Virus record (IMG/VR): IMGVR_UViG_3300044825_002173
Span: 1 to 64,000 of that record
Direction: 5' to 3' (one strand)
Source: a virus
DNA length: 64,000 bases
How positions within the stretch are numbered: position 1 is the stretch's first letter; the number at the start of each line of letters is the position of its first letter. This document shows positions 42,323 to 64,000 of the stretch, in pieces. A program made the translations under genes and the position numbers. A model generated the notes under the pieces. The model searched no databases and was not told the DNA's origin. It saw only the letters and a list, made by a program, of their open reading frames with translations.

Positions 42323-44869
42323 TCAAACAGTACCAGCAACTTCTTCAAAACTTACACCTGTTCTGGTAGCAACAAAGGTAAGTGTGACATAATTAATTGA
42401 TTTAGTTGGTTTCAGGAAGATGTCTGCTCTAAATTCATTGTTATCGATAACATCAGGAGTATTGTTTGAAGAATCACAAACTACCAGGAATCCATAAAGA
42501 CCTCGTTTTGCCTGAACATCACGCAGATAAGGTTCAACAATATTTTTAAAGTTTGCTCTAGTGATTTCATCATTTAATTCAAAAAGTTGAGCTTGAGCAC
42601 TTCTTTGAAGTGCCTGTTCAATAGTAAGGAATAGGCGACGTACATTAATGCGATCAAATGCAGATGCATAACCAAGACCAGTTTTATCTCCAAACAAGAG
42701 AGTTCCAACACCAGGTTGAGTTATAATTGAATTAACTCTGCTGGAATAAAGTCTATCTCTTTGTGCTTTATTTGGATTATATGCTAATTTTATTGCATTA
42801 TTAAGTATTCCTCTTTGCTGTCCTGCTGGAGAGAACCAAGGATATGCAACAATATTTGTACGACACATAAGTCCAGCAACATCTGGGTTGCATGGAATGT
42901 ACACAAATCTATTGTTAAATCTATCATAAGTGTACTTATATCCACTATCAAATACTGCATAAGAAGATGATGGCATTTGAGTGAAGAATCCAATTATATT
43001 ATCAGTTTGAGTATTAGTGTTTGTAACACCAATAACATTTCCTCTATGTGGAGAAACAACTGCAATACAATCTTTTCTTTGCTCTGCAATTGAAACTAGA
43101 TAATTTGCTTTAGTTTTGGATTCATCTTCATTTGCTAATCCAGGACCCATAATTAAATAATCTACTTCAATTTCATCTCTATTTTCAAATAGATCGTAGG
43201 AATTTAATAGATCACCAAGTAATGGAGTAAAACTTCCGGTTTCTCCATTTCCATTTTGCTTATAGTCATTTCCTCCACCTAATGTATATAATGCATTTCC
43301 AAGAGCACTAAAGACTTTATCTTGAGAAGGTTCATTCCACAATCCTTCAGTTTGTGAATAAGGTGAAAAATCTTCACTAAATCCAGTTGCAAAAATTTCT
43401 TCATTGTTTGATGCATCTGATGGATTATCTCCAACATAAACATAATTAGAATATTGTGCAAGATATTCTTTCCACCAAATTCTTTGTGGTGAATTTACTG
43501 CAGAAACTGCATCGCTTGCTTTTGATAGGAATAAGTGCTTCTCAAGAAGGTTTCCTTGGACACCTGTAATACTTCCGGTGTCGTCAAATATTGCCACATG
43601 GAGTGCATCATTTTTACCATTTCTATCAAGGACATACTTATTAGAAACTGGTTTCGGTGCAATTGATTTCCAATAAATTGATCCATTAAGTAGATCAATT
43701 CTTTGCTCATCATACCAGTCTTTTACATTTGAAGAAGAACTTCCAACAGTATTAACTCCAACAGCGCCAAGAACACCACCATCTTCAGTGAATCTTAAAG
43801 TATTTCCAGGTCTAATTGATGCTGCCTGGTTTCTCTCCTGATACGTAATAGGAATATCAGTGGAAGTTCCGGCTGCCACTCTAGAAACAATCTTAACATC
43901 TATTGCATCTGTTTGAACTCCAGTTATAATTCCTTTCAAATAACCATTAAATGAAGTTGTTACTCCAGGAATATTTTGATTGACTAAAGCAACAGTAACC
44001 CCAAGTCCAATGCCATTATCTGCTCTTGCAGTTAATGTCTGAGCAAATGTAGAACCAACAGTAATAATTTGATCCGCTTTATCGTCAATAATACAAACTT
44101 TTAGATCATTTGCCCAAGAACCAGGAGTTTTTGCTGAAAAAATGTAACTTGCAATATCATCAGCGTGAGATTCGTTATAATTATCAAAATTAGTAATTTT
44201 TAAAGTAGAATCACCTACTACAGATGTGCCGGATGTTGTGTAAATATCAGTAATATCAAGAGTGATAGAACCGGTTGTTGCCACACCCACTGTAGCGCCA
44301 ATTTTAGTATTACTGATCGTAATGGTATCTGCGGTAGTAAATCCAACACCACCGTTAGTAATTAAAACTGATGAAAACTTTGCGTTTGCAATTCCATCTG
44401 TAGATGCAATACTAACCTTTAATATTGCACCTGTACCACTACCACTTGTACTATAATCCGTTTCAGTAAGAGTAAAATCTCCACCAACAGTGGTTCCAAT
44501 ACCTGTAGTTTCGTTGGTAACGTTATAAACGACAGTGGTATCAAATCCAGTTATCTCACCAGTTCTTGTTCTCTTTGCATTTGCATTTACAAGATAATCT
44601 CCATCAGTTCTTACTACTTTAAGAACTCCTCCATAAGTCAAATAAGAGGATGCGCTCATCCAGTATTCATACTGACCATCTAAAGTTAGTGGTTTTCCAA
44701 AATTGTTGATTAACTCTTGTTCAGTTGCAATATCAATTGGATAATCTACAGGTCCAATTGAAAAAGGTCCTGCAATTCCTCCAATATTATCTAAAACATT
44801 ATCAGCTCTTCCTACTGTTAAATCAACCTCTCTGACGAGTACGCCTGGAGATAATTGAGGAGTCGCCAT
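42323..44869 (-). CDS. gp18: Tail sheath protein gp18
   Basis: 848 residues (T4 gp18 has 659). It forms the contractile sheath. The N-terminus MATPQLSPGVLVREVDLTVG and the C-terminal region NIVEPYLRDVQAKRGLYGFL, then DVIDNNEFRADIFLKPTKSI, are conserved. About residues 120-340 hold inserted beta material including a NGGVGFTTAD element like the repeats in gp14 and gp7. The extra length comes from this insertion, likely exposed on the outer sheath. A GGAG ribosome site and an AATAAATA element precede the gene. Confidence 0.96.
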   Translation of the reverse strand: MATPQLSPGVLVREVDLTVGRADNVLDNIGGIAGPFSIGPVDYPIDIATEQELINNFGKPLTLDGQYEYWMSASSYLTYGGVLKVVRTDGDYLVNANAKRTRTGEITGFDTTVVYNVTNETTGIGTTVGGDFTLTETDYSTSGSGTGAILKVSIASTDGIANAKFSSVLITNGGVGFTTADTITISNTKIGATVGVATTGSITLDITDIYTTSGTSVVGDSTLKITNFDNYNESHADDIASYIFSAKTPGSWANDLKVCIIDDKADQIITVGSTFAQTLTARADNGIGLGVTVALVNQNIPGVTTSFNGYLKGIITGVQTDAIDVKIVSRVAAGTSTDIPITYQERNQAASIRPGNTLRFTEDGGVLGAVGVNTVGSSSSNVKDWYDEQRIDLLNGSIYWKSIAPKPVSNKYVLDRNGKNDALHVAIFDDTGSITGVQGNLLEKHLFLSKASDAVSAVNSPQRIWWKEYLAQYSNYVYVGDNPSDASNNEEIFATGFSEDFSPYSQTEGLWNEPSQDKVFSALGNALYTLGGGNDYKQNGNGETGSFTPLLGDLLNSYDLFENRDEIEVDYLIMGPGLANEDESKTKANYLVSIAEQRKDCIAVVSPHRGNVIGVTNTNTQTDNIIGFFTQMPSSSYAVFDSGYKYTYDRFNNRFVYIPCNPDVAGLMCRTNIVAYPWFSPAGQQRGILNNAIKLAYNPNKAQRDRLYSSRVNSIITQPGVGTLLFGDKTGLGYASAFDRINVRRLFLTIEQALQRSAQAQLFELNDEITRANFKNIVEPYLRDVQAKRGLYGFLVVCDSSNNTPDVIDNNEFRADIFLKPTKSINYVTLTFVATRTGVSFEEVAGTV

Positions 44870-44903
44870 GTTTTTCTCCGTAAATCTCAGTTTAACTAAA
44901 AAT

Positions 44904-44911
44904 TATTTATT
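44904..44911 (-). promoter_or_regulatory. Late promoter-like AATAAATA for gp18
   Basis: One mismatch to TATAAATA, 35 bases upstream of the gp18 ATG. Confidence 0.45.
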
Positions 44912-44950
44912 AAAAATGTACTTTACGTGGAGAAAACGTGACGTGAATAT

Positions 44951-45184
44951 TCACCAATCAGGATATTGCCATTGCAAAGTAGTTGATATATTTCTTTTCT
45001 TTGACTCAATAACTCTCTTTACCGTACATTCTTTACACTCATATGAAAAGGATGATGCAACAGGACCTCTATCTTTACGAGTTCTATAAAAACCATCAAT
45101 TAAATTTTTGTCTTCACCACAAGTCCTGCATTTTCTATCTGTGAGTAGTAAATGCCCCAATTTGATTTGCTTATCCAAATCCAT
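44951..45184 (-). CDS. Zinc-ribbon protein between gp17 and gp18 (77 aa)
   Basis: 77 residues from the ATG at 45182-45184, which overlaps the gp17 stop as TAATG. It carries two CxxC pairs, CRTC (about 19-22) and CKEC (about 47-50), with the aromatic FYRTRKDRGPVASSFSYE between them: a zinc ribbon or treble-clef type element. Similar proteins next to phage nucleases and packaging genes exist, but this one has no HNH His-Asn-His. It could bind DNA or the terminase; unproven. Confidence 0.75.
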   Translation of the reverse strand: MDLDKQIKLGHLLLTDRKCRTCGEDKNLIDGFYRTRKDRGPVASSFSYECKECTVKRVIESKKRNISTTLQWQYPDW

Positions 45185-46833
45185 TATTGATATTCCCACA
45201 TATATGCCATATCACCATATTCATCAACAAACCATCTATCACCATTTACATCAACAAAACTACTATCGTTTAATCCATCGGTTATAAAACCAAATGGTGC
45301 CATATCTTGTTCTATTTGATTTTTTTGTTCTTCATATAATCTTTTTCTAACATCTTGGTCAGTAAGTTCTTTGAAATAATCTTGTGCGACTAACCAAGCA
45401 TAAATTACCAAACACATTGCCAAGTCATCATTACAACCTTCTTCTGCTTCAAATGAATTATGCTTTTGTATAAAAGTTGTAAGTTCACTCATAATATCGT
45501 AATCTTTAAAGAGAAGTTTATTCTCCTCAATCATAGTTTTTAGGTTAAGACATCCAACTTTTTTTACGGTTTTGGACATCTTTACTCCAAGTTGAGTTTT
45601 CTTTCCTGAAAAACCTTGTCCAACAATTTGACCTGCTCTTCCTCTCATAGAGCACATCAAAAGATTAGTATATTCCAAATCATAATGTATAATTGATGCT
45701 ACTTGATCTCCAACATCATTAACTTCACATAAAATATATGCATTATTATAATTTTTTGCTACATCTACGATAATGCTTGGAAATAACATTGGTTTAATTT
45801 CATTATTTCTATATTTTGCAACTACCTGATGTGGAAATGTAGTAATATCGACTACAATAAATGCTGAATAATCATTACCAACTCCTCTAGCAACGTCCAC
45901 TGAAATTAAATAATCATGGTTTTCCATAGAATCTTCATAAACATCCAACCCACCACTACTTGTTTTTGGATGATCATATACAAGTGCTCTAAGTTTTGAT
46001 GGTGCTATTAAAGTATCTACTGACCCTAAAAACTCACATTCAAACTCAACTTTGAATTGATTTTCTGAAGTGTTTGCAATAGTCTGCTTCTTCCATTCTT
46101 CGTCTCTACCGGGAACTTCACTCCAATGAACGTCAGTATAAACATACTCATTTTTGCCTTTTTCTGCATCATGCCACATACGGTAGAAATGATTCATACC
46201 GTGCGGAGTTGAAACTATAATAACTTTAGTTTGTTTACCTGAAGTAATGGTAGGATATACTGATGCAAAGAACGAATCTGCAATATGATTTGGGACGAAA
46301 GCAAATTCGTCCAAGAATAAAATGTTAAATGACATTCCTCGGACAGCAGATGCAGATGTTGAAGCTGCAAGAATCTTAGAACCATTTTCAAGTTCAAGAG
46401 AACCTTTGTTCCAAGAAATAATACCTTGCTGCATCCACTTTGGAAGGTTTTCATAAGCAGTCTGTAACCTATCCAGAAGTTCTCTGGCTGTCGCTGCTTT
46501 ATTTGCCAAGATACCAATATTTACGTTGTCATTAAAAACAGCATAATGCAAGAGAAAGGATACCACAGTCGTTGACTTACCAGTCTGTCTTGGCATCTTA
46601 CAGATATTAAATCTGTGCTTATGAAAATTATTAATTAATTTCTCTTGAAAATGATATGGTTGAAATGGTTGTAATCCATGATCAAGAGTAACAATTTTTA
46701 CATAATTTTTGGAAAAATAAACCGGATCATTCTGGCATTTGACAAACTCAAGAATTTGTTCTTGAGTAAATTCGTGAGTAGTATTTGCCTTTTTTAAAAG
46801 TGGATTACCAAGATATACATCATTATTTGCCAT
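45184..46833 (-). CDS. gp17: Terminase large subunit gp17
   Basis: 549 residues (T4 gp17 has 610). This ATP-driven DNA packaging motor and headful nuclease has the classical PRQTGKST (81-88), Walker B ILFLDEFAF (171-179, D175, E176), the coupling motif VSTPHG (208-213) and the nuclease domain DVARG (313-317). No intein is present. The start MANNDVYLGNPLLKKANTTH is typical of cyanomyoviruses. It is followed by a zinc-ribbon protein with overlapping codons. Confidence 0.97.
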   Translation of the reverse strand: MANNDVYLGNPLLKKANTTHEFTQEQILEFVKCQNDPVYFSKNYVKIVTLDHGLQPFQPYHFQEKLINNFHKHRFNICKMPRQTGKSTTVVSFLLHYAVFNDNVNIGILANKAATARELLDRLQTAYENLPKWMQQGIISWNKGSLELENGSKILAASTSASAVRGMSFNILFLDEFAFVPNHIADSFFASVYPTITSGKQTKVIIVSTPHGMNHFYRMWHDAEKGKNEYVYTDVHWSEVPGRDEEWKKQTIANTSENQFKVEFECEFLGSVDTLIAPSKLRALVYDHPKTSSGGLDVYEDSMENHDYLISVDVARGVGNDYSAFIVVDITTFPHQVVAKYRNNEIKPMLFPSIIVDVAKNYNNAYILCEVNDVGDQVASIIHYDLEYTNLLMCSMRGRAGQIVGQGFSGKKTQLGVKMSKTVKKVGCLNLKTMIEENKLLFKDYDIMSELTTFIQKHNSFEAEEGCNDDLAMCLVIYAWLVAQDYFKELTDQDVRKRLYEEQKNQIEQDMAPFGFITDGLNDSSFVDVNGDRWFVDEYGDMAYMWEYQ

Positions 46834-46850
46834 AACAAATTCCTAAAAAA

Positions 46851-48758: not shown

Positions 48759-48775
48759 TGATAAAATAGAACCTT

Positions 48776-48787
48776 TATTTATTTATT
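48776..48787 (-). promoter_or_regulatory. Late promoter-like AATAAATAAATA
   Basis: Two overlapping AATAAATA elements, 17 bases upstream of the 635-residue mosaic protein and overlapping the gp16 stop. Confidence 0.35.
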
Positions 48788-50215: not shown

Positions 50216-50264
50216 ATTGGTAACTTACAATACTACTATTTAACATAATTAAATTAATAACTAA

Positions 50265-50272
50265 TATTTATA
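50265..50272 (-). promoter_or_regulatory. T4-type late promoter TATAAATA
   Basis: Exact TATAAATA, 50 bases upstream of gp15 and 5 bases after the gp14 stop. The A/T-rich leader contains ATTAATTTAATTAT. Confidence 0.65.
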
Positions 50273-50276
50273 AGAA

Positions 50277-51680
50277 TTATGGCATTCCAAATGGATTACT
50301 TTCACTAAAATCTATAATTTTATCTGCTTCTTCCTCAATTTCATCATTTGCAGAATATCCATCTTTAACAGTATATGTATCGATAAAACGCAAATAATGA
50401 GATGCGCTAGAAGCACTTCCCACAATATTTTCTCCCGGAATAAACTGACCATCAACTTTAGAAACCTCAAGTATATTAGTAACAGAGTTCCATGATCTAA
50501 CTCTTGCAGTAACTCCACTTTGAGATCCAGTAACTACCTCATTAAATACAAAGTTTCCTGTAGAGTTTAATGCTGGATTTTGGATTGTTATTGATGGTGT
50601 TTGAGTATATCCAAGACCAGCATTTGTAATATAAATTGCAGTAATAGTTCCTGCTGTAGATACAACAGCAGTTGCTGCGGCTGATACTGTAGAAATTCCT
50701 GTAAATGTAATTGTTGGCGGATTTACATACCCAGATCCTCCATTAGTTACTGTAATAATACCAACAATTCCATTTCCAACAGTTGCGGTTGCAGTTGCTC
50801 CTTTTCCTCCACCACCGTAAATTTTTACACCAGGATTAACTGTATATCCATATCCGGCATTTACCACTTGAACATATTGAACAGACTTTGCAACCGGATT
50901 TGCATTATCATTACATACAACTATTCCACTGATCATTTGGGCAATTGCAGTCGCTGTTTTTCCGCCAGATGGAGCAGAGGAAATGCCAACACTAGGAACA
51001 CTTGTGTATCCTCCACCACGATTTGTTACCGTAATGAATCTTACTCCGCCATTTACAATATTGGAAATTGCAGTTGCCGTAATTCCAACCCCAACCATAG
51101 TAAGTTTTTGTATATTTCCTGCAGCAGATAACCCATCTGTACTTCCACTTATATTGTCATCGATTTCTTCAACACTTGTATCAATAATTTCGTCTTCATA
51201 TCTAAAGAGTTCACATCTTAACTCATATGTATATAATCCTTGGAGTTGATAAAAAGGTTTTTCGTGTTCAACATATTTAATTTCAAATAGACGGTCACCT
51301 AAAGGAAAATAAATTAAATCTCCCTCTTTTGGTCTAGATGATAATTTAATGTTAGGATGATTTGCGATTAAAGGAGAAATATAATTTTTAAATCTTTCTC
51401 TTGAAATTGTCAGTGTTATTTCATTAAGTGCTTGTATTCCAAATTTTGATAAAATTGTTGGATTATCAGAGTATCCTTCATAAGTATTTACGTATGCTTC
51501 AATTGGATAAGCACTATCAAAGGCAGATTCTATAACTTCTCTTATTACTTTTTTTTCTGTAATGTATTTTCTGGGCAAGTAATGAATTTCAACACCATAC
51601 ATTCTCAATTGCTCATTGATTAAGTCTTGTATTAAACCCTGTTCTGGTCTTGATCCGTTTAAAAAGAATGGATTTAACAT
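50277..51680 (-). CDS. gp14: Neck protein gp14 with inserted NGGxGY repeats
   Basis: 467 residues (T4 gp14 has 256). The N-terminal part (MLNPFFLNGSRPEQGLIQDL, YLPRKYITEKKVIREVIESA) and the C-terminal VKDGYSANDEIEEEADKIID-FSESNPFG match gp14. Residues about 200-370 are an insertion with four copies of a short beta motif, for example VTNRGGGYTSVP, VVNAGYGYTVNP, VTNGGSGYVNPP and ITNAGLGYTQTP. The insertion accounts for the extra length. It probably forms an exposed beta solenoid or fibre-like projection on the neck. The gene lies 5 bases after gp13. Confidence 0.92.
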   Translation of the reverse strand: MLNPFFLNGSRPEQGLIQDLINEQLRMYGVEIHYLPRKYITEKKVIREVIESAFDSAYPIEAYVNTYEGYSDNPTILSKFGIQALNEITLTISRERFKNYISPLIANHPNIKLSSRPKEGDLIYFPLGDRLFEIKYVEHEKPFYQLQGLYTYELRCELFRYEDEIIDTSVEEIDDNISGSTDGLSAAGNIQKLTMVGVGITATAISNIVNGGVRFITVTNRGGGYTSVPSVGISSAPSGGKTATAIAQMISGIVVCNDNANPVAKSVQYVQVVNAGYGYTVNPGVKIYGGGGKGATATATVGNGIVGIITVTNGGSGYVNPPTITFTGISTVSAAATAVVSTAGTITAIYITNAGLGYTQTPSITIQNPALNSTGNFVFNEVVTGSQSGVTARVRSWNSVTNILEVSKVDGQFIPGENIVGSASSASHYLRFIDTYTVKDGYSANDEIEEEADKIIDFSESNPFGMP

Positions 51681-51685
51681 AGATC

Positions 51686-52912: not shown

Positions 52913-52913
52913 A

Positions 52914-55409
52914 TCAAGCAAGTGCAATAACTCTAAAGTCTTTTACTCTTGGTGGAAAAGCTTGGTTTGTTCCTGATCCAATTAATTTAATACTGAAATA
53001 TTTAAAGGGTGGAAGACTAGGCACAGTAAATTCATAATCTTTAAATACCAAATCACTGGAAATATATCCAATAGAATCGGTTTTAATCATTTTTTTATCT
53101 GAGGTTCCATCACTAAGTGATTCTGAAATAACAACTCCTTCATTCGTTAGATTTGAGTACCCAGGAAATGGATAATAAATTGTTTTTTCGTTAAGATTAT
53201 TCTTAATAGAATATAATGCTCTCAAATCACTAAAAACATTGACATAAGCAGATACAATTACCTTTAAAGAAGTTGCAGGAATTTCTAATTGAATAATATT
53301 TGTTGCATACACAAAGGATGATGGATCTTCTGTTAAATTACTAACTCTATTATCTTCAGCATAATCCTGAATAGGACTATTGATTCTATTACTAGTAAAT
53401 ATCATAGAAACCCTATCCAAATCCACAACTGGTGACAAATAAGAATCTGAAGTTTCTAAAAATAAATCTATAGACATAGATTTATTTCCAGGAAGAGTAG
53501 TTAATCTCTCCGTCTCATTAATTTTTGAACAAATTAATCTTGGCGAATCAAAATAATTATTTTTGCTCAATTCAATATCAACAAATCCTTTATCCTCAAA
53601 AGAATTTTCTGTTCCATCAACACTAGTTCCGGAAATAGTTCTCATTCTTGAAGTTATGTTAGTTCCATTTAATATTGTAGTTTGTATATTTGGATTTGCA
53701 ATTTCATATTGAATATTTTGAGTGGCATTTATAAAAGACCCACCAGTTGATTTTGTTTCATTTGAATAAAGTTTAGGAAAATTTGTTCCAATACTTCTAT
53801 CGACTTGTCCATATGGAAGAGAACTTGTCTTTCCATCTTGTGAAGTATCTATTTTAATAGTATAATAATCAAAATCAATAGGATCTGAAACTTCAGCATC
53901 CTGAAGAGTATGTGTAGTATTAATCCTCCTCAAAGATATTCCATTTAATTCGTATTTGTAGATTGAAGTATTTTGAGTGTAAGAAGCAGATAATGTTTGA
54001 TCAATTCCTCTAGTTATTCCAGTTAAAGAGTTGGAAGTAACTCCATCATAGGATATAATTTCATTTCCAATTAAAATATATCCTGGATTTGTAGTTCCAA
54101 CTCCAACATTTTCAAATGTAGAGAAATTTGTTGTACTATCAACTAAAATGCTTGCAGTAGAAGTTCTATCATAATTAGATGTTAATTTTATCGGTGGCAC
54201 ATCACTTAAAACATTAGATATTCTTACAATGTTTTCTCCAGCGTGCATTCCATGATTTCTATGATTTACTTTTATATGCAATCCATCAGTTTCTGTTTGA
54301 ATACCATCGGCAGGTATAAAAACATTTCCACCAACAGATTGATTTAAATTAGTAGTTATACCAGAATTATTAACATATTGTATTGTTTTTCCTACTCCTG
54401 TTGCAAAATCTCCCTGTACGTTATCAAGTATTAACTCATTTATTCCACTTAAATTAGAAACAGAAAGTTGTAAATTTCTACCAAGAGTTTCTGATCCAAT
54501 TTGAGATGCTGTTAAAACATCACCAATAACATATCCAGTTCCTCCATTTAATATAGTTGCTCCAATCGCAACTCCATTTGAGATCGTAATATCTGCCGTT
54601 GCGTTTCTACCATTTCCTGTAATATTAGTTAATGTAATATTTGAATATGTGGCATTTCCGGTATAACCAATTCCAGAGTTTATAATATTTAAAGTTCCTG
54701 TCGCAATTCCAGCAGATGCAACATAATTTCCAGTTGCATTACTTCCTACTTGTAAAATTGTATTTCCTAAAGTAAGATTTGTGTCTTGCACTGTAGTCCC
54801 TAATCCCACTCTTATTCTTTTCGATGAAAACTCAAGTGGATTTGAAACTAGTGTTGCTATTTGTTTGTTTCCTAAACCTAATTCTGGGTTATAAAAACTA
54901 AAGTTTCCTTCGGTTTGTGTAAAATTTGCTCTATACAAGGTAAATTTTAAGTCTTCATATGGACTTTCATTCCAAGTTGAAGCATTTTGTGATTTAAAAA
55001 GACCTCCAGAAACTGGTTGCTTAGTCACAAAAATCTGTCTAGATTCTGGTCCTGACAAAGTTGTAACATCAACTTCACCAAGTCTAGAAACCCAAACATT
55101 ATAATTTTGTGACTGAGAGAGTATTACAAGCGCATGAAATCTTTGTCCAAGCAAATATATTGGAGATGGAAAAGTAATTCTTGTTGGAACTGAAGCATCA
55201 TTAAATGCCTTAATATCTTTTGGATCTATTACAACTTCACTAAATGGATAAACTTTTTGTGTAGGAAGACCAAGTTCCATTGGTCTAAGTTGAATAGTTA
55301 CTGGTAAAGTTTCATCCTTTGATAAAAAATATAAATCAACAGAGGTAATAAAGGCTCCTTTTGGATTTTCAATATAAAATGATTGTGCTAATGGATCTAT
55401 AACATTCAT
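52914..55409 (-). CDS. Large virion (baseplate or fibre) protein, 831 aa
   Basis: 831 residues. The start DPLAQSFYIENPKGAFITSV and DLYFLSKDETLPVTIQLRPM matches a module common in cyanomyovirus tail proteins. The rest is beta-rich with two NGGxGY-type elements (NIINSGIGYTG, ILNGGTGYVIGD) and a C-terminal segment PPFKYFSIKLIGSGTNQAFP. It lies next to the 1846-residue DUF4815 protein, where T4 has gp9-gp12, so a baseplate or short-fibre role is likely but cannot be fixed. An AATAAATA element is 23 bases upstream. Confidence 0.85.
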   Translation of the reverse strand: MNVIDPLAQSFYIENPKGAFITSVDLYFLSKDETLPVTIQLRPMELGLPTQKVYPFSEVVIDPKDIKAFNDASVPTRITFPSPIYLLGQRFHALVILSQSQNYNVWVSRLGEVDVTTLSGPESRQIFVTKQPVSGGLFKSQNASTWNESPYEDLKFTLYRANFTQTEGNFSFYNPELGLGNKQIATLVSNPLEFSSKRIRVGLGTTVQDTNLTLGNTILQVGSNATGNYVASAGIATGTLNIINSGIGYTGNATYSNITLTNITGNGRNATADITISNGVAIGATILNGGTGYVIGDVLTASQIGSETLGRNLQLSVSNLSGINELILDNVQGDFATGVGKTIQYVNNSGITTNLNQSVGGNVFIPADGIQTETDGLHIKVNHRNHGMHAGENIVRISNVLSDVPPIKLTSNYDRTSTASILVDSTTNFSTFENVGVGTTNPGYILIGNEIISYDGVTSNSLTGITRGIDQTLSASYTQNTSIYKYELNGISLRRINTTHTLQDAEVSDPIDFDYYTIKIDTSQDGKTSSLPYGQVDRSIGTNFPKLYSNETKSTGGSFINATQNIQYEIANPNIQTTILNGTNITSRMRTISGTSVDGTENSFEDKGFVDIELSKNNYFDSPRLICSKINETERLTTLPGNKSMSIDLFLETSDSYLSPVVDLDRVSMIFTSNRINSPIQDYAEDNRVSNLTEDPSSFVYATNIIQLEIPATSLKVIVSAYVNVFSDLRALYSIKNNLNEKTIYYPFPGYSNLTNEGVVISESLSDGTSDKKMIKTDSIGYISSDLVFKDYEFTVPSLPPFKYFSIKLIGSGTNQAFPPRVKDFRVIALA

Positions 55410-55431
55410 TTGACTATTCTTTATTATTCTT

Positions 55432-55439: not shown

Positions 55440-55450
55440 TTGCTTAAATA

Positions 55451-58400
55451 TTATTTTTTATTTTTATTATTTTTATTATTGTTATTGTTGTTACTGCCGA
55501 AGGGATTTCCGCCAGTGAATCCCGATGGCAGTCCTCCAGAAGATGGGTTGTTTGGTTTGGTAGGTGCTGTAGATGGTTTGGCAGGCACAGTGTTATTACC
55601 TCCACCTCCACTGCCGAAGGGATTTCCGCCGGTGAATCCCGATGGTAGATTAGATCCTCCACTACTAGATATAGGAGTACGGACAATACTATTCATAAAT
55701 TTATCGCCTGTTACGTTGTTATTTTTATTACTTCCTGGTGGTGGTTCATTAACTCTAGCCTTAGTTTCTCCAGATCCTATCCTTTCAGGTTGTACTGCAA
55801 CTACTTGCCCAGTTCCAATTGTAGTTTTAGCTGAATTGTAAGCATTTCCTGTAGATACTTTTATATTATTATTGCTAGAATAAGAACTGTTATTAATTTG
55901 ATTAACAATTCTTTTTTCTTGGGTTCTCGACATATTTTCATCAATTTTTTCGATAAGATCTTTTGAAACACCTCCTTTTCTTGCAAGGTCTTTTAATCTC
56001 TGCCTACCACTATCATCTAAATCTGGTTTATAATAATTGTAGTAAACTGTAGTTGGTAGTGTTGTGAGTGGTCCTGTGATGGGTGCTGGTAACTGTTGTG
56101 GTGTTGCTGCTGGTTGTGCTGCTGGTTGTGCTGCTGGTTGTGCTGCTGGTTGTGCTGCTGGTTCTGATGATGGTCTTGATGATGGTCTTGATGATGGTGC
56201 TGAAGGTGGAGGTGTTCCAGGACCAGGAATCATTGGTTCATCTTGAGGAGCTTCTATTCTAATTGGTCTAGAAACAATAACATTTTCTTGAACTGTATTT
56301 ATCTTACCTTCGGAAACATACTTTTCTTCAGCACTAGTTGTATATGTACCAAATATTAATGAATTAGTATTACTGCTAGTTAATCTAAAAGTTTTACTAC
56401 CACATTCAAATTTTGGATTAACATCTACATTTGGATTTGGAATAAAGAAAGAACCAAGAACCGCACCAGTGTCGTCAGTTATTAATTTAACATCTACAAT
56501 AGTTGCTTCTGCTTGACTTGTTTGTCCTCTTAATTTCATTCCAATTGCAACATATCCACTAAATTGTCCTTGTGGTTGATTAGATAAACTATAAGTATCA
56601 ATATTAAGAATAGATGATGTTGAAGAATATGATTCTGAAATATTAGTGGTAGAATTATATGGGTTTATTGTATAGACATCAGAAGGACTGTTGTATGTTC
56701 CATACTTATGATTTTGCTGAGCAACTCTAAAAGTTATTTTTGGTAATAATCCATTAGGATCATCAAAACTACCTATAACAGTTTCTCCTACCTGAAAAAC
56801 ACCGCTAATCATAGTAATTTCAAGTAATTTTGGTATAATATACTTATTAGTATCAATACCACCAAAGAATGAATAAACTTTTGTCAATGGTTTTAATCTT
56901 TTAGCGATAAATTCAATATTTCTAGATCTCATATATGGTATTAATCTAGTATTAAGAACTACATCTCCGAAAGAAGTTCTTTTTTCTGATACGGCCCAAG
57001 TATTTGTTGCTGCATCCCAAGTAGCTCCAGCAAACCCCGTTTGTGGATCAGATTGAAGAATTTTTTGTATTTCAGATTCTTCTCTATCAACAAAAATAGT
57101 ATTTCCAGTAGATCTAGATTGGTCTACCCAAACATCGGATGATGGTTGTAGGAAAATGGTTCCCGTATAAAAATCGGTAGTATATGGGTTTACATTTACT
57201 GCTCTTGATGCATATGGTTGATCAATAATTATAGACTCTGTGTAATCTAATGTTACAAGTTGTCCAGTTCTTTTTACTCCACTTCCAATTAAACTAGTAT
57301 CTGTTCTTGCATCTGCTAAAGGATTTGCTTCTGTTCCTAACCCAATGGAAGAATTTGTTCCAAGTAACAGATCAACTGATGTTGTAAAATGAGTTGGTCT
57401 TAATTCTAAGTTATTAGGATCAATAGAATTTTTATAAACTGTCAATCTATCTTGATTATCATTTGAAGTAAAATTATCAACAAAAAATCCACATTTAAAT
57501 CTGTTGCGTTGATTATCATCTAATGTTGAAAAATTAGAAGCATTAACCTCAAGTAAAGAAAGCGAGGTGTAATATTCTAAATTTTCAATTCTATCTTCTA
57601 GTTTACCAATATCTGACATCCTATATCTTTTATGTTCCTTTAATTCAATATTAATTTCATTCACATTAATAAGATATGGTTGTAAATATGCAGTGGCAAT
57701 TTCTAGAACATCTTCATTGATAATTGGTGGTTGAGGAGTTTCTGCAGGAGTTCCTATTTTTAATTGAAATCCGCCAGTTTTATCGATAAGAATTTTATCA
57801 ATTCTTGGAAGATAGAACGAATATGATAAAAGAATCGATTCATCTGATGCTAAAACATTGGAAGCAGAATTTCCGGAAGATGTAAAATTCCTTGCTAAAA
57901 ATTCAAATGGAGATCTTGAATTTAAAGACGGTGAAATAGTAGAAACTCTTGGTCTAATATCTAGAATATCTGAATTTCTTAAAGTAGTGTAAACACTTGG
58001 TATATTAGAATAATTAAATTGCTCATAAGAATTTACCGTTGTTATGTCACCAGTGTCCGATGCGGAAAAACTTGCAGATTCATAAACAATTTTTAATTTT
58101 CTTATGGGTTCTTTTGAGTTACTATTTCTAATAATCTTAGAATAGTCATAAATAGTTTCCTTTTGATTTGAATCGAAAGTAAAAGAAGAACTAATATCTT
58201 TATCTCCAGAATTTATAACAGAAATAAATGCAGTAATTCCAGATTCTCCAAATGTTACTTTTTCACCTTCAATAAAACTATTTGAATTCAAATTTACAAA
58301 TCCTATCTGTAAATCATTAATTTTTTCTGCATATACTCCTAAAGATTGACTGCGTTCTCCAATAAAAGATTCTCCAATTAAAAGATCTCCAGTTTTATTG

Positions 58401-60991
58401 GTTGGACCATTTATAGAAGTTAAAACAATAGATGGGATGTTAGGATCGGTTACATCACTTGATTCAAATATACCATAAACACCTGTTACATCAGATTCAA
58501 GTAAACAAATTTCTTCATCATGTACTCTAGTACCATATGGATAGTTTCCATATGTAAGACCATCATTTAAGGTAGTGGCACCAACTCCAGATGCAGAATA
58601 TATTGATTTATCAACAACTATAGATTTTATTCTATTTCTATTTTTAATTTTTGATTTTACATTGTTTTTTCTAAGAGTAGCAATTAATTTTGCAGATCCA
58701 CTTCCAGAAATACCATTGATAGTTAATGAACTTGATCCAGGACCAAAAGAAAATTTATCTTCAGTTAATGTTTCTGTTTGACCACTGCTCATTATTAAAA
58801 CATATCGTTCTTCATCGAATGGTAAAAATGTTTCATTTGTTCCGGCATTAATCACTCCAGTAGAACTAGAGGTAATAGTAACATCAAACTGTTTTCTTAT
58901 TGTTAAACTAGAATTGGTTAAATCGACGTTTGATACATATTGTTTTGGAAGAATGGTGTATAAAGAATTATCCTCTGATGATTGCAATGTTGTGGTTATG
59001 ATTTTAAAATCTGAAGGATTAATCTCAACTGTCGGAAGATCACCATTACAAACACCAACAACTGATGTAACACTACTAATTCCTAATGTTCTATCAGATA
59101 CTGAGGTAATTTTGGCGTAACTAATTGTAGAAATTCCGGGATTAGAAAATGCTACTAGATTTCCTGTAGTTACAATTCCGGTAAAAATTACATTAGAAGA
59201 AGTTACTGTACTAATTCCACCAGATTCTGCAGTTATCTTCACTTGCCCAATAAGTCCAGAAGAACTCTGAATCGTATCTGCATTAAATGTATATGCAGTT
59301 CCAACTACACCATAAATTGATTTTACATCACTTATTCCATATTCTTTTATTGATTTAGTTACTCTAGTGTTCTCTACGCCATCAAAAATAAGTTTTTCTC
59401 CTAATGAAAATTTGCCGCTAGAACTATAAACTGTAACTGCTGTTCCTGCAGAAACATCATATCTAAGAAAACCTACAGCACCACTTTGCTTCCCTTTAAT
59501 ATGAGTAGGGGTATTTAAAGTTATTGGTTCATTTAATTGAATAGTTGTATATGGTTGTATATCATACAGAGTAATATCCCACTGATTTTCTTGTGGATTT
59601 GATGTGGTGTATGAACCAGATTCTAAAGCAAAGTCATATACTCTAGCAAGACCAATTTCATTTCCCGATTCAATATGAGAAGATACTCCTACTCTAGAGT
59701 CTCTTAAACTAACATAATAAGTAGTAGCAATGCTAACTATTGGTGAACCATAAACTCTGTTAAGTGTAATTGTAGATCCTGTAAAATAATTTATACTTTG
59801 ATTTTCTAAAGTTTTCGTATTTCTTGGTTTAGGAAAATCTAAAAATGTTGGACTAATAGTTTCAATTTCAAATCCTCTCACATATGCTTTAAGTGGAGAT
59901 ATATTATAAGTTCCAAGATCTTCACTTGGAGTATTATTATTATATGTTAATTGATCTGAATTGAAGATACCATTATTCCCTAAAAAATTATTAAGAGTTT
60001 CTTGCGCCTTTACAATAGGGGGATTTACATAATAGTCTCCAGATTCATCAAATGTTCTTCTTGCAAATTCTTGCGATAATACATTATATTCCACCTTGCC
60101 TGAAATATTAACAAGTTTTCCTGCATTAATCTCTAATAATTGTACAAAATTATTAGTGTCAATTGAGTCTAAAGGTATTTGTTCTAATGTTGCAAAAATC
60201 GAAAATCTGTCTGCTCCAGGTGCTGCATAATTTGAGAATCCTTGAGAATTATCGTATAAAGAATCATCGTCATATGATGTTTTAATTTCTTCATATATTC
60301 TAAGACCTACTTTAGCACTTGGAACATTTGAATATGGGTCTAAGTATAAAATACTTGTAGGAACAGTTACAAAGTATCCTCTTAGAAAATATATTCCTTC
60401 TTCCAAATAAACTGCGGAACCTATGGATGTGCTATTTTGTGAGATTGTAGTTGCAAATCCTTCTCCTGTTCTAATTAAAATTTCTGAGGGATCCTCTTCA
60501 TCTATGGTATTTGGATCTAATACTAAAATGTCTTGATCCAATAATAAGTTTTCGCCATCTATAAAAGTTTTTTGTGAATTATCTTGATTTCCTGAGGTTA
60601 AATATTTTACAAATAAAGTATTCTTACTTACACCGTTACCCGTTTTTAAATAACTTTCAATCGTAGCAGTAACACCACTCTGTTGACCTTTTATTTTTGT
60701 TCCCAATAAACTTTCAAGATAGATATCAGAAGGAAGTCCTTGATAATAATCATCTAAAATTACACTATTAAGATCATTTTTATAAACTATGTTTCCAGGA
60801 ACAACTACAGAACCCTCTTTAAAAATATGATTTCCAAATTGTTCAATTTGATTTTGTAATATAGATTGTAATGTAGTTAATTCTCTTGCCTGGACTGGAT
60901 ATCCGGGTTTAAAAAGAACTTTATAATATTCGTTTTTAAAATCAAAGTCATCAAAATAAGGAGAGACATTAAGGTTTGTTTCTTGTGACAT
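55451..60991 (-). CDS. Giant DUF4815-type tail protein (1846 aa)
   Basis: 1846 residues, the largest gene here. The N-terminus SQETNLNVSPYFDDFDFKNE, YYKVLFKPGYPVQARELTTL and QSILQNQIEQFGNHIFKEGS is the DUF4815 signature of cyanophage structural proteins. A long beta-rich body follows, then a helical stretch (KEHKRYRMSDIGKLEDRIEN) and a low-complexity C-terminus with Pro/Ala/Gln repeats (QPAA), Ser/Arg-Pro and two PSGFTGGNPFGS copies, ending in Asn/Lys. It occupies the place of T4 gp9-gp12. I infer a baseplate-proximal fibre or receptor-contacting protein; the repeats are likely variable between strains. Confidence 0.88.
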   Translation of the reverse strand: MSQETNLNVSPYFDDFDFKNEYYKVLFKPGYPVQARELTTLQSILQNQIEQFGNHIFKEGSVVVPGNIVYKNDLNSVILDDYYQGLPSDIYLESLLGTKIKGQQSGVTATIESYLKTGNGVSKNTLFVKYLTSGNQDNSQKTFIDGENLLLDQDILVLDPNTIDEEDPSEILIRTGEGFATTISQNSTSIGSAVYLEEGIYFLRGYFVTVPTSILYLDPYSNVPSAKVGLRIYEEIKTSYDDDSLYDNSQGFSNYAAPGADRFSIFATLEQIPLDSIDTNNFVQLLEINAGKLVNISGKVEYNVLSQEFARRTFDESGDYYVNPPIVKAQETLNNFLGNNGIFNSDQLTYNNNTPSEDLGTYNISPLKAYVRGFEIETISPTFLDFPKPRNTKTLENQSINYFTGSTITLNRVYGSPIVSIATTYYVSLRDSRVGVSSHIESGNEIGLARVYDFALESGSYTTSNPQENQWDITLYDIQPYTTIQLNEPITLNTPTHIKGKQSGAVGFLRYDVSAGTAVTVYSSSGKFSLGEKLIFDGVENTRVTKSIKEYGISDVKSIYGVVGTAYTFNADTIQSSSGLIGQVKITAESGGISTVTSSNVIFTGIVTTGNLVAFSNPGISTISYAKITSVSDRTLGISSVTSVVGVCNGDLPTVEINPSDFKIITTTLQSSEDNSLYTILPKQYVSNVDLTNSSLTIRKQFDVTITSSSTGVINAGTNETFLPFDEERYVLIMSSGQTETLTEDKFSFGPGSSSLTINGISGSGSAKLIATLRKNNVKSKIKNRNRIKSIVVDKSIYSASGVGATTLNDGLTYGNYPYGTRVHDEEICLLESDVTGVYGIFESSDVTDPNIPSIVLTSINGPTNKTGDLLIGESFIGERSQSLGVYAEKINDLQIGFVNLNSNSFIEGEKVTFGESGITAFISVINSGDKDISSSFTFDSNQKETIYDYSKIIRNSNSKEPIRKLKIVYESASFSASDTGDITTVNSYEQFNYSNIPSVYTTLRNSDILDIRPRVSTISPSLNSRSPFEFLARNFTSSGNSASNVLASDESILLSYSFYLPRIDKILIDKTGGFQLKIGTPAETPQPPIINEDVLEIATAYLQPYLINVNEINIELKEHKRYRMSDIGKLEDRIENLEYYTSLSLLEVNASNFSTLDDNQRNRFKCGFFVDNFTSNDNQDRLTVYKNSIDPNNLELRPTHFTTSVDLLLGTNSSIGLGTEANPLADARTDTSLIGSGVKRTGQLVTLDYTESIIIDQPYASRAVNVNPYTTDFYTGTIFLQPSSDVWVDQSRSTGNTIFVDREESEIQKILQSDPQTGFAGATWDAATNTWAVSEKRTSFGDVVLNTRLIPYMRSRNIEFIAKRLKPLTKVYSFFGGIDTNKYIIPKLLEITMISGVFQVGETVIGSFDDPNGLLPKITFRVAQQNHKYGTYNSPSDVYTINPYNSTTNISESYSSTSSILNIDTYSLSNQPQGQFSGYVAIGMKLRGQTSQAEATIVDVKLITDDTGAVLGSFFIPNPNVDVNPKFECGSKTFRLTSSNTNSLIFGTYTTSAEEKYVSEGKINTVQENVIVSRPIRIEAPQDEPMIPGPGTPPPSAPSSRPSSRPSSEPAAQPAAQPAAQPAAQPAATPQQLPAPITGPLTTLPTTVYYNYYKPDLDDSGRQRLKDLARKGGVSKDLIEKIDENMSRTQEKRIVNQINNSSYSSNNNIKVSTGNAYNSAKTTIGTGQVVAVQPERIGSGETKARVNEPPPGSNKNNNVTGDKFMNSIVRTPISSSGGSNLPSGFTGGNPFGSGGGGNNTVPAKPSTAPTKPNNPSSGGLPSGFTGGNPFGSNNNNNNKNNKNKK
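55493..55645. repeat. 36-bp direct repeats encoding PSGFTGGNPFGS
   Basis: 55493-55528 and 55610-55645 agree in 35 of 36 bases. Both encode the same dodecapeptide near the C-terminus of the 1846-residue protein. Confidence 0.9.
56105..56164. repeat. 12-bp tandem repeat (5 copies) encoding QPAA
   Basis: Five successive copies of tgctgctggttg on the plus strand (last copy with one change), followed by three copies of a related tgatgatggtct unit. It is in frame and encodes Ala-Ala-Gln-Pro repeats in the 1846-residue protein. Confidence 0.9.
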
Positions 60992-61003
60992 AGTGTTTAA
61001 TCT

Positions 61004-62557
61004 TTAAAATTGCAAAATAACTTTGATATCTTCTTTTTGATTTGTAGACCTAGTTATTGACGGTCTATGATCAACATAAATTATATTTCCCGAATATTTT
61101 TTAACCTCAGGATTTGATATTCCTTTGGTAAAGGATTGTCCAAGATAGTATGTTCTACTATTTATTGAAGTGGATACACCACTAAAGGAAGTATCTATTC
61201 CCAAAACTACACTTCCACCAGTAATATTTAATGATCCTCCTGTTGAAAGAGAAGAGGTGAATCTATTTAAATTAAATCCATAAGTTGGAGAAGAATTTTG
61301 CGTTCCATCACTATTAAATCCAACTAAAGATTTATCTTGCCAATATTTTAGAACACCAGTATTCTTATCATAAGAAATTACTCTACCAACAGCGGTAGAT
61401 GCAGTTCCAATAGTTTGTGTAATTCTAGAATCTGGAACAAAGGTTGCTGAATCATATCCATTTCCAGATAACTTAAGTGCATAAACTGCACTCGCTTTGT
61501 TTTCTACCAATAGAGAAGATGACCCATATACTTCAGGATTTTCAACAATTCCAATTCTAGAAATTTGATTTCCTGTTATAAAATCAGGATTTTCTGAATC
61601 ATTTTCAATTCTAGAAAAAATTAAAACGTTTTTTGCTCCTAATTCTCTATAAATATCTGCTCCATGACCACCTTTTGGCGGAATAATCACATCAAAAGAT
61701 GGCGTTGTAGACCCCGTAGGAACTCCACCAGAAACCAAATCAACCGTTCCATAAGTATACCCAGATCCACCCTTAGAAACAGTAATTGAATCTATTTTTG
61801 AGTCATTATTGACAATTATTGTAACCTCAGCTCCAGATCCATCACCTACAATAGGAACTTTTACATATGATCTATTAGGAGGTCCAACTTCAACTCCACG
61901 ATTTGTAATTGTTACTACTTTTATTTGACCACTAGTTAATGCATTATCTCTTACTGTGGCATTGTCATCACTAGTTTCCCAATTCTTTGGAACAGGTATA
62001 AAATTAGCAGAATCAAATTTTATAATTTCACTAGGTTTAATTGTATACAAATATTTCCAAACATACCCGTCTCCACTATCTCCTGCGATTCTTGGTTCCA
62101 GATCTGTAAATGTAGGTTGATCTAAAGATGGTCTTCCTTCAGGGTTTTCTGGATCAGTTCCATTTTGAAGACAGATATAAACTCTATAATCTTCATTTAT
62201 CACATAATAGTTTGCAGAATATAAACTAGTTGCTCCTGATGGTTTTGATGTATTAGTTCTACTAATATTATGGCGGTACATATCATATATTGTACCTGAT
62301 GTCCAAACATTCTTTTTTACAACTTGATTTATATCACTAGGATAGATTTTTTTTAATCCAACCATTGTATCCCAATAATCATTCTCTTGATCAAAACTAT
62401 CTTTAGGTGCTGGTGGATTAAAATCCCAATTTGAATCATAATCAGTAGGATTTGTCAGACCAACAAAGCAATAATAAGAATTTGTAGTAGAAGTTGCGGT
62501 CGCTACAAAGTTTTTTGCATTTAAAATTCTAAGTTGATCAGTTATTATTGCAGACAT
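61004..62557 (-). CDS. gp8: Baseplate wedge protein gp8
   Basis: 517 residues (T4 gp8 has 334). The framework of T4 gp8 is visible: FNPPAPKDSFDQENDYWDTM and VGLKKIYPSDINQVVKKNVW, then DGYVWKYLYTIKPSEIIKF, and the very end YVDHRPSITRSTNQKEDIKV-ILQF. Inserted beta material at about 215-290 (with SKGGSGYTYG) and 380-460 explains the larger size. It binds the gp7 wedge in T4; gp7 is the next gene upstream here. AATAAATA elements lie about 13 bases before the ATG. Confidence 0.9.
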   Translation of the reverse strand: MSAIITDQLRILNAKNFVATATSTTNSYYCFVGLTNPTDYDSNWDFNPPAPKDSFDQENDYWDTMVGLKKIYPSDINQVVKKNVWTSGTIYDMYRHNISRTNTSKPSGATSLYSANYYVINEDYRVYICLQNGTDPENPEGRPSLDQPTFTDLEPRIAGDSGDGYVWKYLYTIKPSEIIKFDSANFIPVPKNWETSDDNATVRDNALTSGQIKVVTITNRGVEVGPPNRSYVKVPIVGDGSGAEVTIIVNNDSKIDSITVSKGGSGYTYGTVDLVSGGVPTGSTTPSFDVIIPPKGGHGADIYRELGAKNVLIFSRIENDSENPDFITGNQISRIGIVENPEVYGSSSLLVENKASAVYALKLSGNGYDSATFVPDSRITQTIGTASTAVGRVISYDKNTGVLKYWQDKSLVGFNSDGTQNSSPTYGFNLNRFTSSLSTGGSLNITGGSVVLGIDTSFSGVSTSINSRTYYLGQSFTKGISNPEVKKYSGNIIYVDHRPSITRSTNQKEDIKVILQF

Positions 62558-62569
62558 TTTGCAGTTTTT

Positions 62570-62577
62570 TATTTATT
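62570..62577 (-). promoter_or_regulatory. Late promoter-like AATAAATA for gp8
   Basis: One mismatch to TATAAATA, one of two overlapping copies, 13 bases upstream of gp8 and next to the gp7 stop. Confidence 0.3.
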
Positions 62578-62579
62578 TA

Positions 62580-64000
62580 TTAGATATATTTTGAATAATT
62601 AAGAGGATTATATCTTTCTACGATTGGTGATGTTGAAATTCCAACTAAACCATTATTATAAAATTCAAAATCTTTTGGATTTGATCTAAATGGAGCAGAA
62701 ATTCTTCCCCAACTAAATTCTCCAAAAAATTCACTATAACCGGTTCCAACAAGACCATTATAATTTCTAACACTTACTGTTACTTTAGCAACATGTGTAA
62801 TTCCTAACCCAGGAACACTTGTTTGGGCAATTGAAACTGCGGCAACTTGATATACATTATCTAAGAAAGAATTTCCAATTGAAACTATTGATCCATTTGA
62901 TCTTAAAGAAGTGACACCATATCCAATATTTGAATTGTATACAACAAAATAATAACCAGTTTGAATTCCACTTACCGTTATTGCAGTGCCAACTATTGAA
63001 GAATCTCTTAGGAAGGAATCTTTGGGTATAACAAGATCAAATACAATTCCTGTAGATGCAACTCCCACAGACACTGTTGAAACTCCAGAAATAATTCCAA
63101 AATCTCCAGTATATGTAACTAATGAAATGTCTTCTACATAATCTGAAATTTTAGGATTTTCAATAATAACTATTGGCGGATTTGTTGATGTATATCCAAA
63201 TCCAGAATTTGTAATACTAATAGAAGTAACAATTCCAGATGTAATTGATGAAGTTGCACTAGCTTTTTCATTGTTTACTCCAAATTCAAATGTTGTTGTT
63301 GCAATTCCAAGATTAGTAGTTGTAGTTCCAAGACCAACTTGACTAGATCCCAAAGAAACAACCACAGTTCCAGTAGGAACATATTCATTTTGAACTATCA
63401 ATCCTGTAGTTATTCCTATTGTATTAATTCCAGTAACAATGTTTGTACTCACTCCAATTATACCTTCAGCAGATACAATCGAAACAAAATCTCCAACATC
63501 TATTGGATCAGCAAAAATAACTGTTGGAGCAGATATATAACCAATACCACCGTTTGTAATAGATATTGAAGTTATTGTGCCAGCAGTAGAGACTATTGCA
63601 GTAGCAGAAGCTCCAACAAGATTGTCTTGCGATACTATTCTAATCTTATTTTGTTTTAAAGAATTTTCTTTTGCACTATCAAAAAATGTTTTTACACTTT
63701 CAACAAAAATAACTGTAGATCCTATACCAACAGATTGTATAATTTTTGTATTTGGATAAATTAAAGGTTCATACCAAATTCTATCTTTTGTGATCGGTTT
63801 TCCATCAACAAATAAATCATCAGTTTGTTTACACCAAATTAATGGTCTAGTATAATTTGTATCAACATTTATTCCTGGTCCAGGATATGAATTGGTATCA
63901 ATACTATCAATAGAGTTAACTGACATTACAATTCTCTCTTCTTCACTATAAGCAAAGTTATCATCATTTAATCTTACATTATCTCCAACTTTAATTGTCT
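62580..64000 (-). CDS. gp7: Baseplate wedge protein gp7 (partial, N-terminus beyond right edge)
   Basis: The reading frame stays open to the window edge. The residues before the internal Met at 63924-63926 (KVGDNVRLNDDNFAYSEEER) are plainly coding, so that Met is not the start. About 472 residues of the C-terminal part are visible. PLIWCKQTDDLFVDGKPITK and DRIWYEPLIYP begin the conserved wedge domain. Two NGGxGY elements (ITNGGIGYISAP, ITNSGFGYTSTN) follow, and the closing SEFFGEFSWGRISAPFRSNP carries the family ending. The position immediately upstream of gp8 fits T4 gene order. The gp7 assignment rests mainly on that order and on the cyanophage family. Confidence 0.8.
   Translation of the reverse strand, partial: TIKVGDNVRLNDDNFAYSEEERIVMSVNSIDSIDTNSYPGPGINVDTNYTRPLIWCKQTDDLFVDGKPITKDRIWYEPLIYPNTKIIQSVGIGSTVIFVESVKTFFDSAKENSLKQNKIRIVSQDNLVGASATAIVSTAGTITSISITNGGIGYISAPTVIFADPIDVGDFVSIVSAEGIIGVSTNIVTGINTIGITTGLIVQNEYVPTGTVVVSLGSSQVGLGTTTTNLGIATTTFEFGVNNEKASATSSITSGIVTSISITNSGFGYTSTNPPIVIIENPKISDYVEDISLVTYTGDFGIISGVSTVSVGVASTGIVFDLVIPKDSFLRDSSIVGTAITVSGIQTGYYFVVYNSNIGYGVTSLRSNGSIVSIGNSFLDNVYQVAAVSIAQTSVPGLGITHVAKVTVSVRNYNGLVGTGYSEFFGEFSWGRISAPFRSNPKDFEFYNNGLVGISTSPIVERYNPLNYSKYI

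What the first reader, a model, noticed from the sequence alone, without database searches (positions are those of the whole stretch)
42323..64000. A NGGxGY beta repeat spread over unrelated tail proteins
Short elements of the form (I/V)TNxGxGYxxxP occur in gp7 (two), gp8 (one), gp14 (four), gp18 (one) and the 831-residue protein (two), each time within an insertion relative to T4. The repeat seems to be a mobile surface module that decorates the tail and neck. Such modules might bind glycans or host surface polymers, or contact each other.
Basis: partly seen in the sequence, partly recalled or inferred. Interest (0 to 1): 0.5.

Follow-up and report, generated by a model that had tools for sequence, protein, structure and literature searches.

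The report
Portable beta module in phage tails
A roughly 40-residue protein building block recurs in several unrelated tail and neck proteins of this cyanobacterial virus; the same block turns up in many other viral structural proteins, in a known outward-facing domain of the phage T4 tail sheath in a worn-down form, and in loops of a few exported bacterial and archaeal enzymes, so it looks like a portable, assembly-neutral surface module rather than something invented by this phage.

Summary
Models built from one gene find the copies in others (gp14 to gp7 1e-9, gp7 to gp14 3e-12), so the five proteins share one unit, about 40 residues with three predicted strands. It is in seven of seven whole Kyanoviridae records searched and none of five Straboviridae/Ackermannviridae records at that threshold. 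No Pfam or NCBIfam model covers it.

Two points change the reading. First, gp18 is not a new insertion relative to T4: it sits where T4 has sheath domain I, and domain I of T4-like phages carries a degenerate copy in register. T4 domain I has a crystal structure, points outward and docks baseplate and retracted fibres. Second, the unit is no phage-tail speciality: it occurs in about 1-3% of sampled genomes of four bacterial and archaeal phyla, inside multicopper oxidases, a cytochrome c peroxidase, SusD lipoproteins and an adhesin. Best reading: a portable, surface-exposed beta module used as spacer or docking surface. Glycan binding is untested.

The parts
50961..51086 (-). gp14 copy 1 (residues 199-240), ITVTNRGGGYTSVP
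   Evidence: profile E 3e-11
50796..50927 (-). gp14 copy 2 (residues 252-295)
   Evidence: profile E 8.7e-11
50679..50810 (-). gp14 copy 3 (residues 291-334)
   Evidence: profile E 6.5e-10
50562..50690 (-). gp14 copy 4 (residues 331-373)
   Evidence: profile E 2.8e-13
50373..51119 (-). gp14 residues 188-436: confidently modelled beta region that holds the four copies; matches of solved small barrels span 188-436 but align only 55-81 residues
   Evidence: pLDDT 79-95 in nearly all ten-residue blocks from 191 to 430, one block (251-260) at 52; VIA-align rows
63501..63617 (-). gp7 copy (residues 128-166 of the ORF in the window)
   Evidence: profile E 1.3e-12
63153..63263 (-). gp7 copy (residues 246-282 of the ORF in the window)
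   Evidence: profile E 3e-12
61709..61840 (-). gp8 copy (residues 240-283), in a stretch absent from T4 gp8
   Evidence: profile E 1.2e-11; alignment
54492..54611 (-). 831-aa protein copy 2 (residues 267-306), variant with GY..GD
   Evidence: profile E 4.3e-7
54618..54743 (-). 831-aa protein copy 1 (residues 223-264), weak
   Evidence: E 2.9e-5 with own-gene model, 0.71 with the all-copy model
44204..44578 (-). gp18 insert (residues 98-222), at the site of T4 sheath domain I
   Evidence: alignment of 101 sheath proteins
44303..44404 (-). gp18 copy (residues 156-189)
   Evidence: profile E 8.7e-6; 1.4e-8 with a model that leaves gp18 out, E-value for one sequence

Best explanation
The unit is a portable beta module of about 40 residues: strand A (ATAxV), a turn, strand B (ITxITVTN), the NGGxGY loop, strand C (PTVTF or GDxITI). 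One or several units are accepted into loops of already folded proteins without disturbing the host fold. In the cyanophage virion it sits in the neck (gp14), the baseplate wedge (gp7, gp8), the VrlC-like baseplate protein and, in some lineages, in the outward domain of the sheath (gp18). Shown: the shared unit, its places, its presence/absence. Inferred: that it works as an assembly-neutral, outward-facing spacer and docking surface, as T4 sheath domain I does for baseplate and retracted long tail fibres. Extra copies in gp14 would then enlarge the collar-side surface of a phage family that carries large and variable tail appendages.
For: Family: cross-gene profile hits; controls empty. Place: gp18 insert borders lie at T4 residues 94-96; domain I of 12 Straboviridae-type sheaths against the all-copy profile: hhalign probability 80, E 1.5e-5, score 26.0, against a maximum of 17.0 in 100 column shuffles, and only windows that cover domain I score; single sheaths 44RR2 and avDM10 reach E 0.001 and 0.00047 (for 12 sequences). 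T4 domain I protrudes, is not in gp18-gp18 contacts, binds baseplate and retracted fibres (PMC3004832 section 12). Insertability: gp18 with and without the insert (18 and 83 of 101 rows), one row with the module twice, gp14 with 0, 2, 3 or 4 copies between a conserved core and a conserved C-terminal peptide, and insertion into unrelated exported enzymes. Confidently modelled beta structure in gp14 188-436. Copies lie only in structural, tail-fibre or unnamed large late-gene ORFs where I looked up the annotation.
Against: No structure of the unit outside T4 domain I was matched: Foldseek and sequence searches of the PDB gave nothing convincing for the gp14 repeats, and the two-unit alignment of T4 domain I with gp14 copies 3-4 is within the shuffle range (score 18.5, 1 of 100 shuffles as high). 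Exposure of the gp7, gp8 and gp14 copies was not tested. In T4 the gp14 C-terminal region 178-256 contacts gp15 (PMC12270204), so the gp14 insert could be partly buried at that joint. Function is by analogy.
Confidence: 0.5

Rival explanations
1. Adhesion module: the units bind glycans or envelope polymers of the host and help the virion to hold on before irreversible adsorption.
For: Some carriers are cell-surface or carbohydrate proteins: three SusD lipoproteins, a TPS-secreted adhesin, tail fibre proteins of P-SSM2, and a protein with a weak CBM_5_12 match below its cut-off. Sheath accessory domains have been proposed to help adhesion (PMC9230969).
Against: Other carriers are multicopper oxidases and a di-haem cytochrome c peroxidase, for which sugar binding is not expected. 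No carbohydrate-binding family matched the phage units.
Confidence: 0.2
2. Interface module: the units of neighbouring proteins pair with each other or with the fibres and lock the tail together.
For: They occur in proteins that touch or lie near each other in the T4 virion (gp7 with gp8; sheath with baseplate; PMC3004832); T4 domain I binds baseplate and fibres.
Against: The gp18 unit is absent from 83 of 101 sheath rows, among them named cyanophages that keep the gp7, gp8 and gp14 units, so it is not needed as a partner.
Confidence: 0.15
3. Convergence: N-G-G turns between two exposed strands arise again and again in loops of beta proteins, and the family is a sequence style, not a lineage.
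For: The unit is short, its alphabet is small, many copies are under 30% identical, and the profile drifted onto the sheath core (gp18 711-748) before that was removed.
Against: 0 hits in reversed and shuffled sets; only 2 of 2659 unassigned ORFs and 0 of 192 gp13 and gp15 ORFs of the related loci hit; fixed register over about 40 positions including strand A; whole cyanophage records show hits only in a few ORFs.
Confidence: 0.15

Closest known systems
T4 gp18 tail sheath domain I (residues 98-188; PDB 3FOA, 3FO8)
   Same: Same site in the orthologous protein; conserved motif TISxxGSNYxVGDxIxVKY in register with the NGGxGY loop and strands B and C; beta domain; Aeromonas phage 44RR2 has TITTEGQGYTVGDAITVKY.
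   Different: T4's copy is degenerate and single by sequence; cyanophage inserts are longer (112-209 residues) and their modelled strands (106-209) were not superposed on domain I by themselves.
Ig-like and other additional domains of phage virion proteins (PMC9230969)
   Same: Optional beta domains added to sheath and other virion proteins, away from the tube, exchanged between phages.
   Different: Those are described as often Ig-like sandwiches; the unit here is about 40 residues with three strands, and none of the five stretches scanned (which cover the gp14, gp18, gp8 and 831-aa units and the end of gp14) hits a Pfam model up to E 1.
PHROG families 460, 701, 708, 2885, 4406, 5342, 19630 and others
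   Same: The gp14 repeats alone hit 14 PHROG families below 1e-3, of which 12 are annotated as head closure, virion structural, baseplate wedge or tail fibre and 2 have no function.
   Different: These are whole-protein families; none is defined by the repeat.

Membership tests
T4-type sheath domain I | Inserted at T4 gp18 residues 98-188 between the two parts of domain II | tested here: met
   window insert borders align to T4 residues 94-96; gp18 model matches 3foa_C at Z 21.1, rmsd 3.2, 342 aligned; domain limits from PMC3004832 section 12
T4-type sheath domain I | Shared sequence motif | tested here: met
   hhalign E 1.5e-5, 0 of 100 shuffles as high
T4-type sheath domain I | Six-stranded beta barrel plus a helix | tested here: inconclusive
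   model has seven strands and a short helix between 106 and 209, block pLDDT 41-82; not superposed alone
T4-type sheath domain I | Protrudes from the sheath, docks baseplate and retracted fibres | not testable with these tools
   no map of this phage
Phage Ig-like accessory domain | Match to an Ig-like family model | tested here: not met
   no Pfam family up to E 1 for five stretches that include gp14, gp18, gp8 and 831-aa units; gp7 units only as part of the whole protein, up to E 0.1
Phage Ig-like accessory domain | Beta-sandwich fold of about 80-100 residues (size recalled) | tested here: inconclusive
   the 50 rows shown by the second-look fold search of gp14 align at most 81 residues, many of them to barrel domains of translation factors and ATP synthases

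The most novel reading that the evidence does not exclude
One portable beta unit, without a family name in Pfam or NCBIfam, is shared by virion proteins of many phages, by the solved outward domain of the T4 sheath, and by loops of exported enzymes and lipoproteins of bacteria and archaea: a protein-level insertion module that is taken up wherever a surface loop can hold it, and that gave T4-like phages their docking domain for fibres.
Probability: 0.35. Interest if true: 0.7.

Novelty: new variant of a known kind. Interest (0 to 1): 0.52.

Why it matters
If right, a motif that recurs through marine phage baseplates and necks gets a solved structural anchor (T4 sheath domain I) and a working hypothesis. 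It would allow annotation of many unnamed virion proteins and of odd loops in cellular enzymes, and it offers a natural example of a module that proteins accept in loops without losing their fold.

Tried and rejected
tblastn with the gp14 repeats alone found only 4 phage records, probably because of low-complexity filtering and short divergent units, so profiles were used instead. The first iterated profile drifted onto the sheath core (gp18 711-748, TGLGYASAFDRINVRRLFL); this made gp18 look positive in nearly all relatives and was removed by dropping gp18 hits from the C-terminal half. With the cleaned model at the strict whole-set threshold no gp18 of a relative passes (0 of 102); scored one sequence at a time with a model that leaves gp18 out, 15 of 18 inserts (the window's included) hit below 0.01, 3 of 18 below 0.001, and no row hits outside the insert.

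Considered: that the C-terminus of T4 gp14 (VVVNNRGKSFESSPF) is a copy. HMMER aligns it with gp14 copy 1, but the other Straboviridae looked at do not keep it; judged chance or a C-terminal peptide.

Considered: recent copying between genes of this genome. DNA identity of copies is at most 59%: rejected. Considered: two T4 domain I units aligned with gp14 copies 3-4; score inside the shuffle range: left open.

NCBIfam: no family up to E 1 for six whole window proteins. Foldseek of the gp14 model against the PDB: only T4 gp14 below 1e-3.

Paper searches for motif strings: ten strings, one paper found, on ColE1 plasmids by its title and not opened; phage Ig-like, T4 neck and cyanomyovirus structure searches gave no description of this repeat in their listings. 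The library is open-licence PubMed Central only, so this does not show that it is undescribed. One search found no paper. Papers: PMC3004832 passages and section 12; PMC12270204, PMC9230969 and PMC7029224 passages; all others search listing only.

Rows dropped: in making the 764-copy model, hits without G.G[YF], or not 44 residues long, and gp18 C-half hits were left out. For the gp14 structure 54 sequences (window plus 53 of 80 fetched relatives) and for gp18 39 (window plus 38 of 80) were used. In the gp18 tree, row L191 is cut at its 5' end, so its 'no insert' label is an artefact and the true number of changes is probably 3, not 4. In the archaeal survey one of the two positive genomes has its match in a frame with three stops.
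Full report
What the window is. The window is part of a virus record of 65,133 bases. Its late genes lie on the minus strand in the order of T4-like cyanophages: sheath gp18, terminase gp17, gp15, gp14, gp13, a VrlC-like protein in two ORFs (831 and 1846 aa), gp8 and the C-terminal part of gp7. The nearest named phages are Kyanoviridae such as S-SM2, and SynMITS9220M01.

Is the repeat there? Yes. A profile of 764 distinct 44-residue copies from the window and its relatives hits five of 241 window ORFs below 1e-3 and nothing in one reversed and two shuffled sets. Among ORFs of related loci it hits gp7 81 of 81, gp14 101 of 107, gp8 102 of 113, the VrlC-like ORFs 52 of 120 and 29 of 40, but gp13 0 of 111, gp15 0 of 81, gp18 0 of 102 and unassigned ORFs 2 of 2659. 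These ORF sets come from loci fetched with gp14, gp8 and gp18 as queries and from four named phages, so they are centred on this region of the genome. Single-gene models find the other genes' copies, so the unit is shared and not five separate repeats.

What the unit looks like. Consensus of one unit: xGxGAxATAxVxxGxVxxIxVTNxGxGYTxxPxxTIxxPx; G25, G27 and Y28 of the first row are invariant over 20 chosen copies, A4, G14 and P32 nearly so. The gp14 model has three strands per unit, for instance 293-302, 305-313 and 324-327, with pLDDT mostly 79 to 95 over 191-430; the gp14 core was modelled poorly. Matches of solved structures span model residues 188 to 436 but align only 55 to 81 residues, best a T4-like phage baseplate chain (9f4a_A0, 765-853, Z 7.7, rmsd 4.2, 81 aligned) and the barrel domains of translation factors; Z below 8 is weak by the tool's own note. 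I read this as units inserted into a small barrel, an inference. No solved structure matches the units by sequence.

Place by place. gp14: T4, the pelagiphage HTVC008M, three other Straboviridae and an Ackermannviridae phage have no units there; S-RIM8 and ACG-2014b have two, the window four, always between the conserved core and, in Kyanoviridae, a conserved C-terminal peptide (DF-S/T-E-x-NPFG). gp8: one copy in 91 of 92 near-full-length relatives, in a stretch missing from T4 gp8, and one match in the ORF annotated baseplate wedge of HTVC008M. gp7: several copies per protein in long proteins. gp18: an insert in 18 of 101 sheath proteins, of 112-209 residues, with clean borders; one relative has it twice. 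On the tree the insert needs 4 changes, probably 3 once a truncated row is set aside, against 16.9 on average in shuffles, so it is inherited within clades and gained or lost a few times.

The T4 link. The gp18 insert starts where T4 domain I starts. Domain I of T4-like sheaths has a conserved motif, TISxxGSNYxVGDxIxVKY in T4 relatives and TITTEGQGYTVGDAITVKY in Aeromonas phage 44RR2. Against the all-copy profile this region scores 26.0 (E 1.5e-5), above all of 100 column shuffles (maximum 17.0), and no other part of the sheath scores. With the narrower gp18-insert profile the margin is thin (22.8 against a maximum of 22.4), and with the gp14 double-unit profile 1 of 100 shuffles is as high. 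So T4 very probably does have a worn copy, at one of the five places. Domain I protrudes from the tail, is not in sheath-sheath contacts, and binds baseplate and retracted long tail fibres (PMC3004832 section 12). Since most kyanoviral sheaths looked at lack the insert while Straboviridae have domain I, loss in many cyanophages is as good as gain in some; the data do not decide.

Wider spread. Whole-record scans: 7 of 7 Kyanoviridae records (the window's fragment not counted) have 2 to 23 matches, 0 of 5 records of T4, ValKK3, 44RR2, SFP10 and avDM12 have any at E 1e-3. Besides gp7, gp8, gp14 and VrlC, copies lie in a virion structural protein of Bellamy, two tail fibre proteins of P-SSM2 and a putative structural protein of HTVC008M; in S-RIM8 several lie in large ORFs annotated only as hypothetical, among the baseplate genes. 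The repeats alone hit 14 PHROG families below 1e-3, and the gp14 model has 69 matches below 1e-3 among predicted viral structures, including an uncultured phage protein named after P22 gp10, a Sinorhizobium phage baseplate wedge protein and a Sylvanvirus protein; these last may rest on the gp14 core or barrel and were not checked.

Cellular copies. A scan of bacterial and archaeal contigs with the window's own repeats gave four loci, all from metagenome-assembled genomes. Three look like multicopper oxidases and one like a SusD lipoprotein, with one to four units inside. A profile search of drawn genomes found units in 3 of 296, 6 of 198, 4 of 198 and 2 of 196 species of the four phyla, each count including the seed genome. 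Pfam names among nine carriers scanned: SusD (three), di-haem cytochrome c peroxidase, TPS-secreted adhesin, multicopper oxidase, one with a sub-threshold CBM match; two oxidase-like carriers had no Pfam hit and are named from their sequence by eye. The seed genome of the SusD locus has units in five ORFs. Misbinned contigs cannot be excluded for metagenome-assembled genomes.

Function. The unit's hosts share one thing: they are, as far as named, exported or virion proteins, and the unit sits in or at the edge of otherwise known domains. That speaks for a module that tolerates insertion and faces outward. The best-founded role is that of T4 domain I: a docking surface for baseplate and fibres. 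Adhesion to the host stays possible. Sheath accessory domains have been proposed to help adhesion or virion stability (PMC9230969, passages). In T4 the gp14 C-terminal region, where the cyanophage units are inserted, meets gp15 in the virion (PMC12270204, passages), so part of the gp14 insert may touch the tail top.

Verdict. Observation right in substance, one premise wrong for gp18, interpretation half right. The finding is more general than proposed: a portable beta unit, unnamed in the libraries searched, with one probable solved relative.

Noticed in passing
window 52914-55409 and 55451-60991: The VrlC-like protein is split into two ORFs (1846 and 831 aa) with a 41-base AT-rich gap; 71 relatives have one fused ORF and 18 have an ORF like the 831-aa protein without the long N-terminal part, two of these cut at a contig edge.
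   Followed up: partly
L179 sheath gene: One relative carries the sheath module twice in tandem (209-residue insert).
   Followed up: no
window gp14 residues about 375-436 and 1846-aa protein residue about 97: A second recurring element, GExIxGxxSGAxAxV, is seen by eye in gp14 and by pattern in the 1846-aa protein; it may be the small barrel that holds the gp14 units.
   Followed up: no
L256, L257, L258, L262, L263, L268, L270, L272: NGGxGY units inside bacterial and archaeal multicopper oxidases, a cytochrome c peroxidase, SusD lipoproteins and an adhesin.
   Followed up: partly
window gp18 residues 711-748: The conserved sheath core TGLGYASAFDRINVRRLFL mimics the motif and can pull an iterated profile off course.
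   Followed up: yes
P-SSM2 record 216077-216283 and 32047-32133: Units also occur in annotated tail fibre proteins far from the neck and baseplate genes.
   Followed up: no
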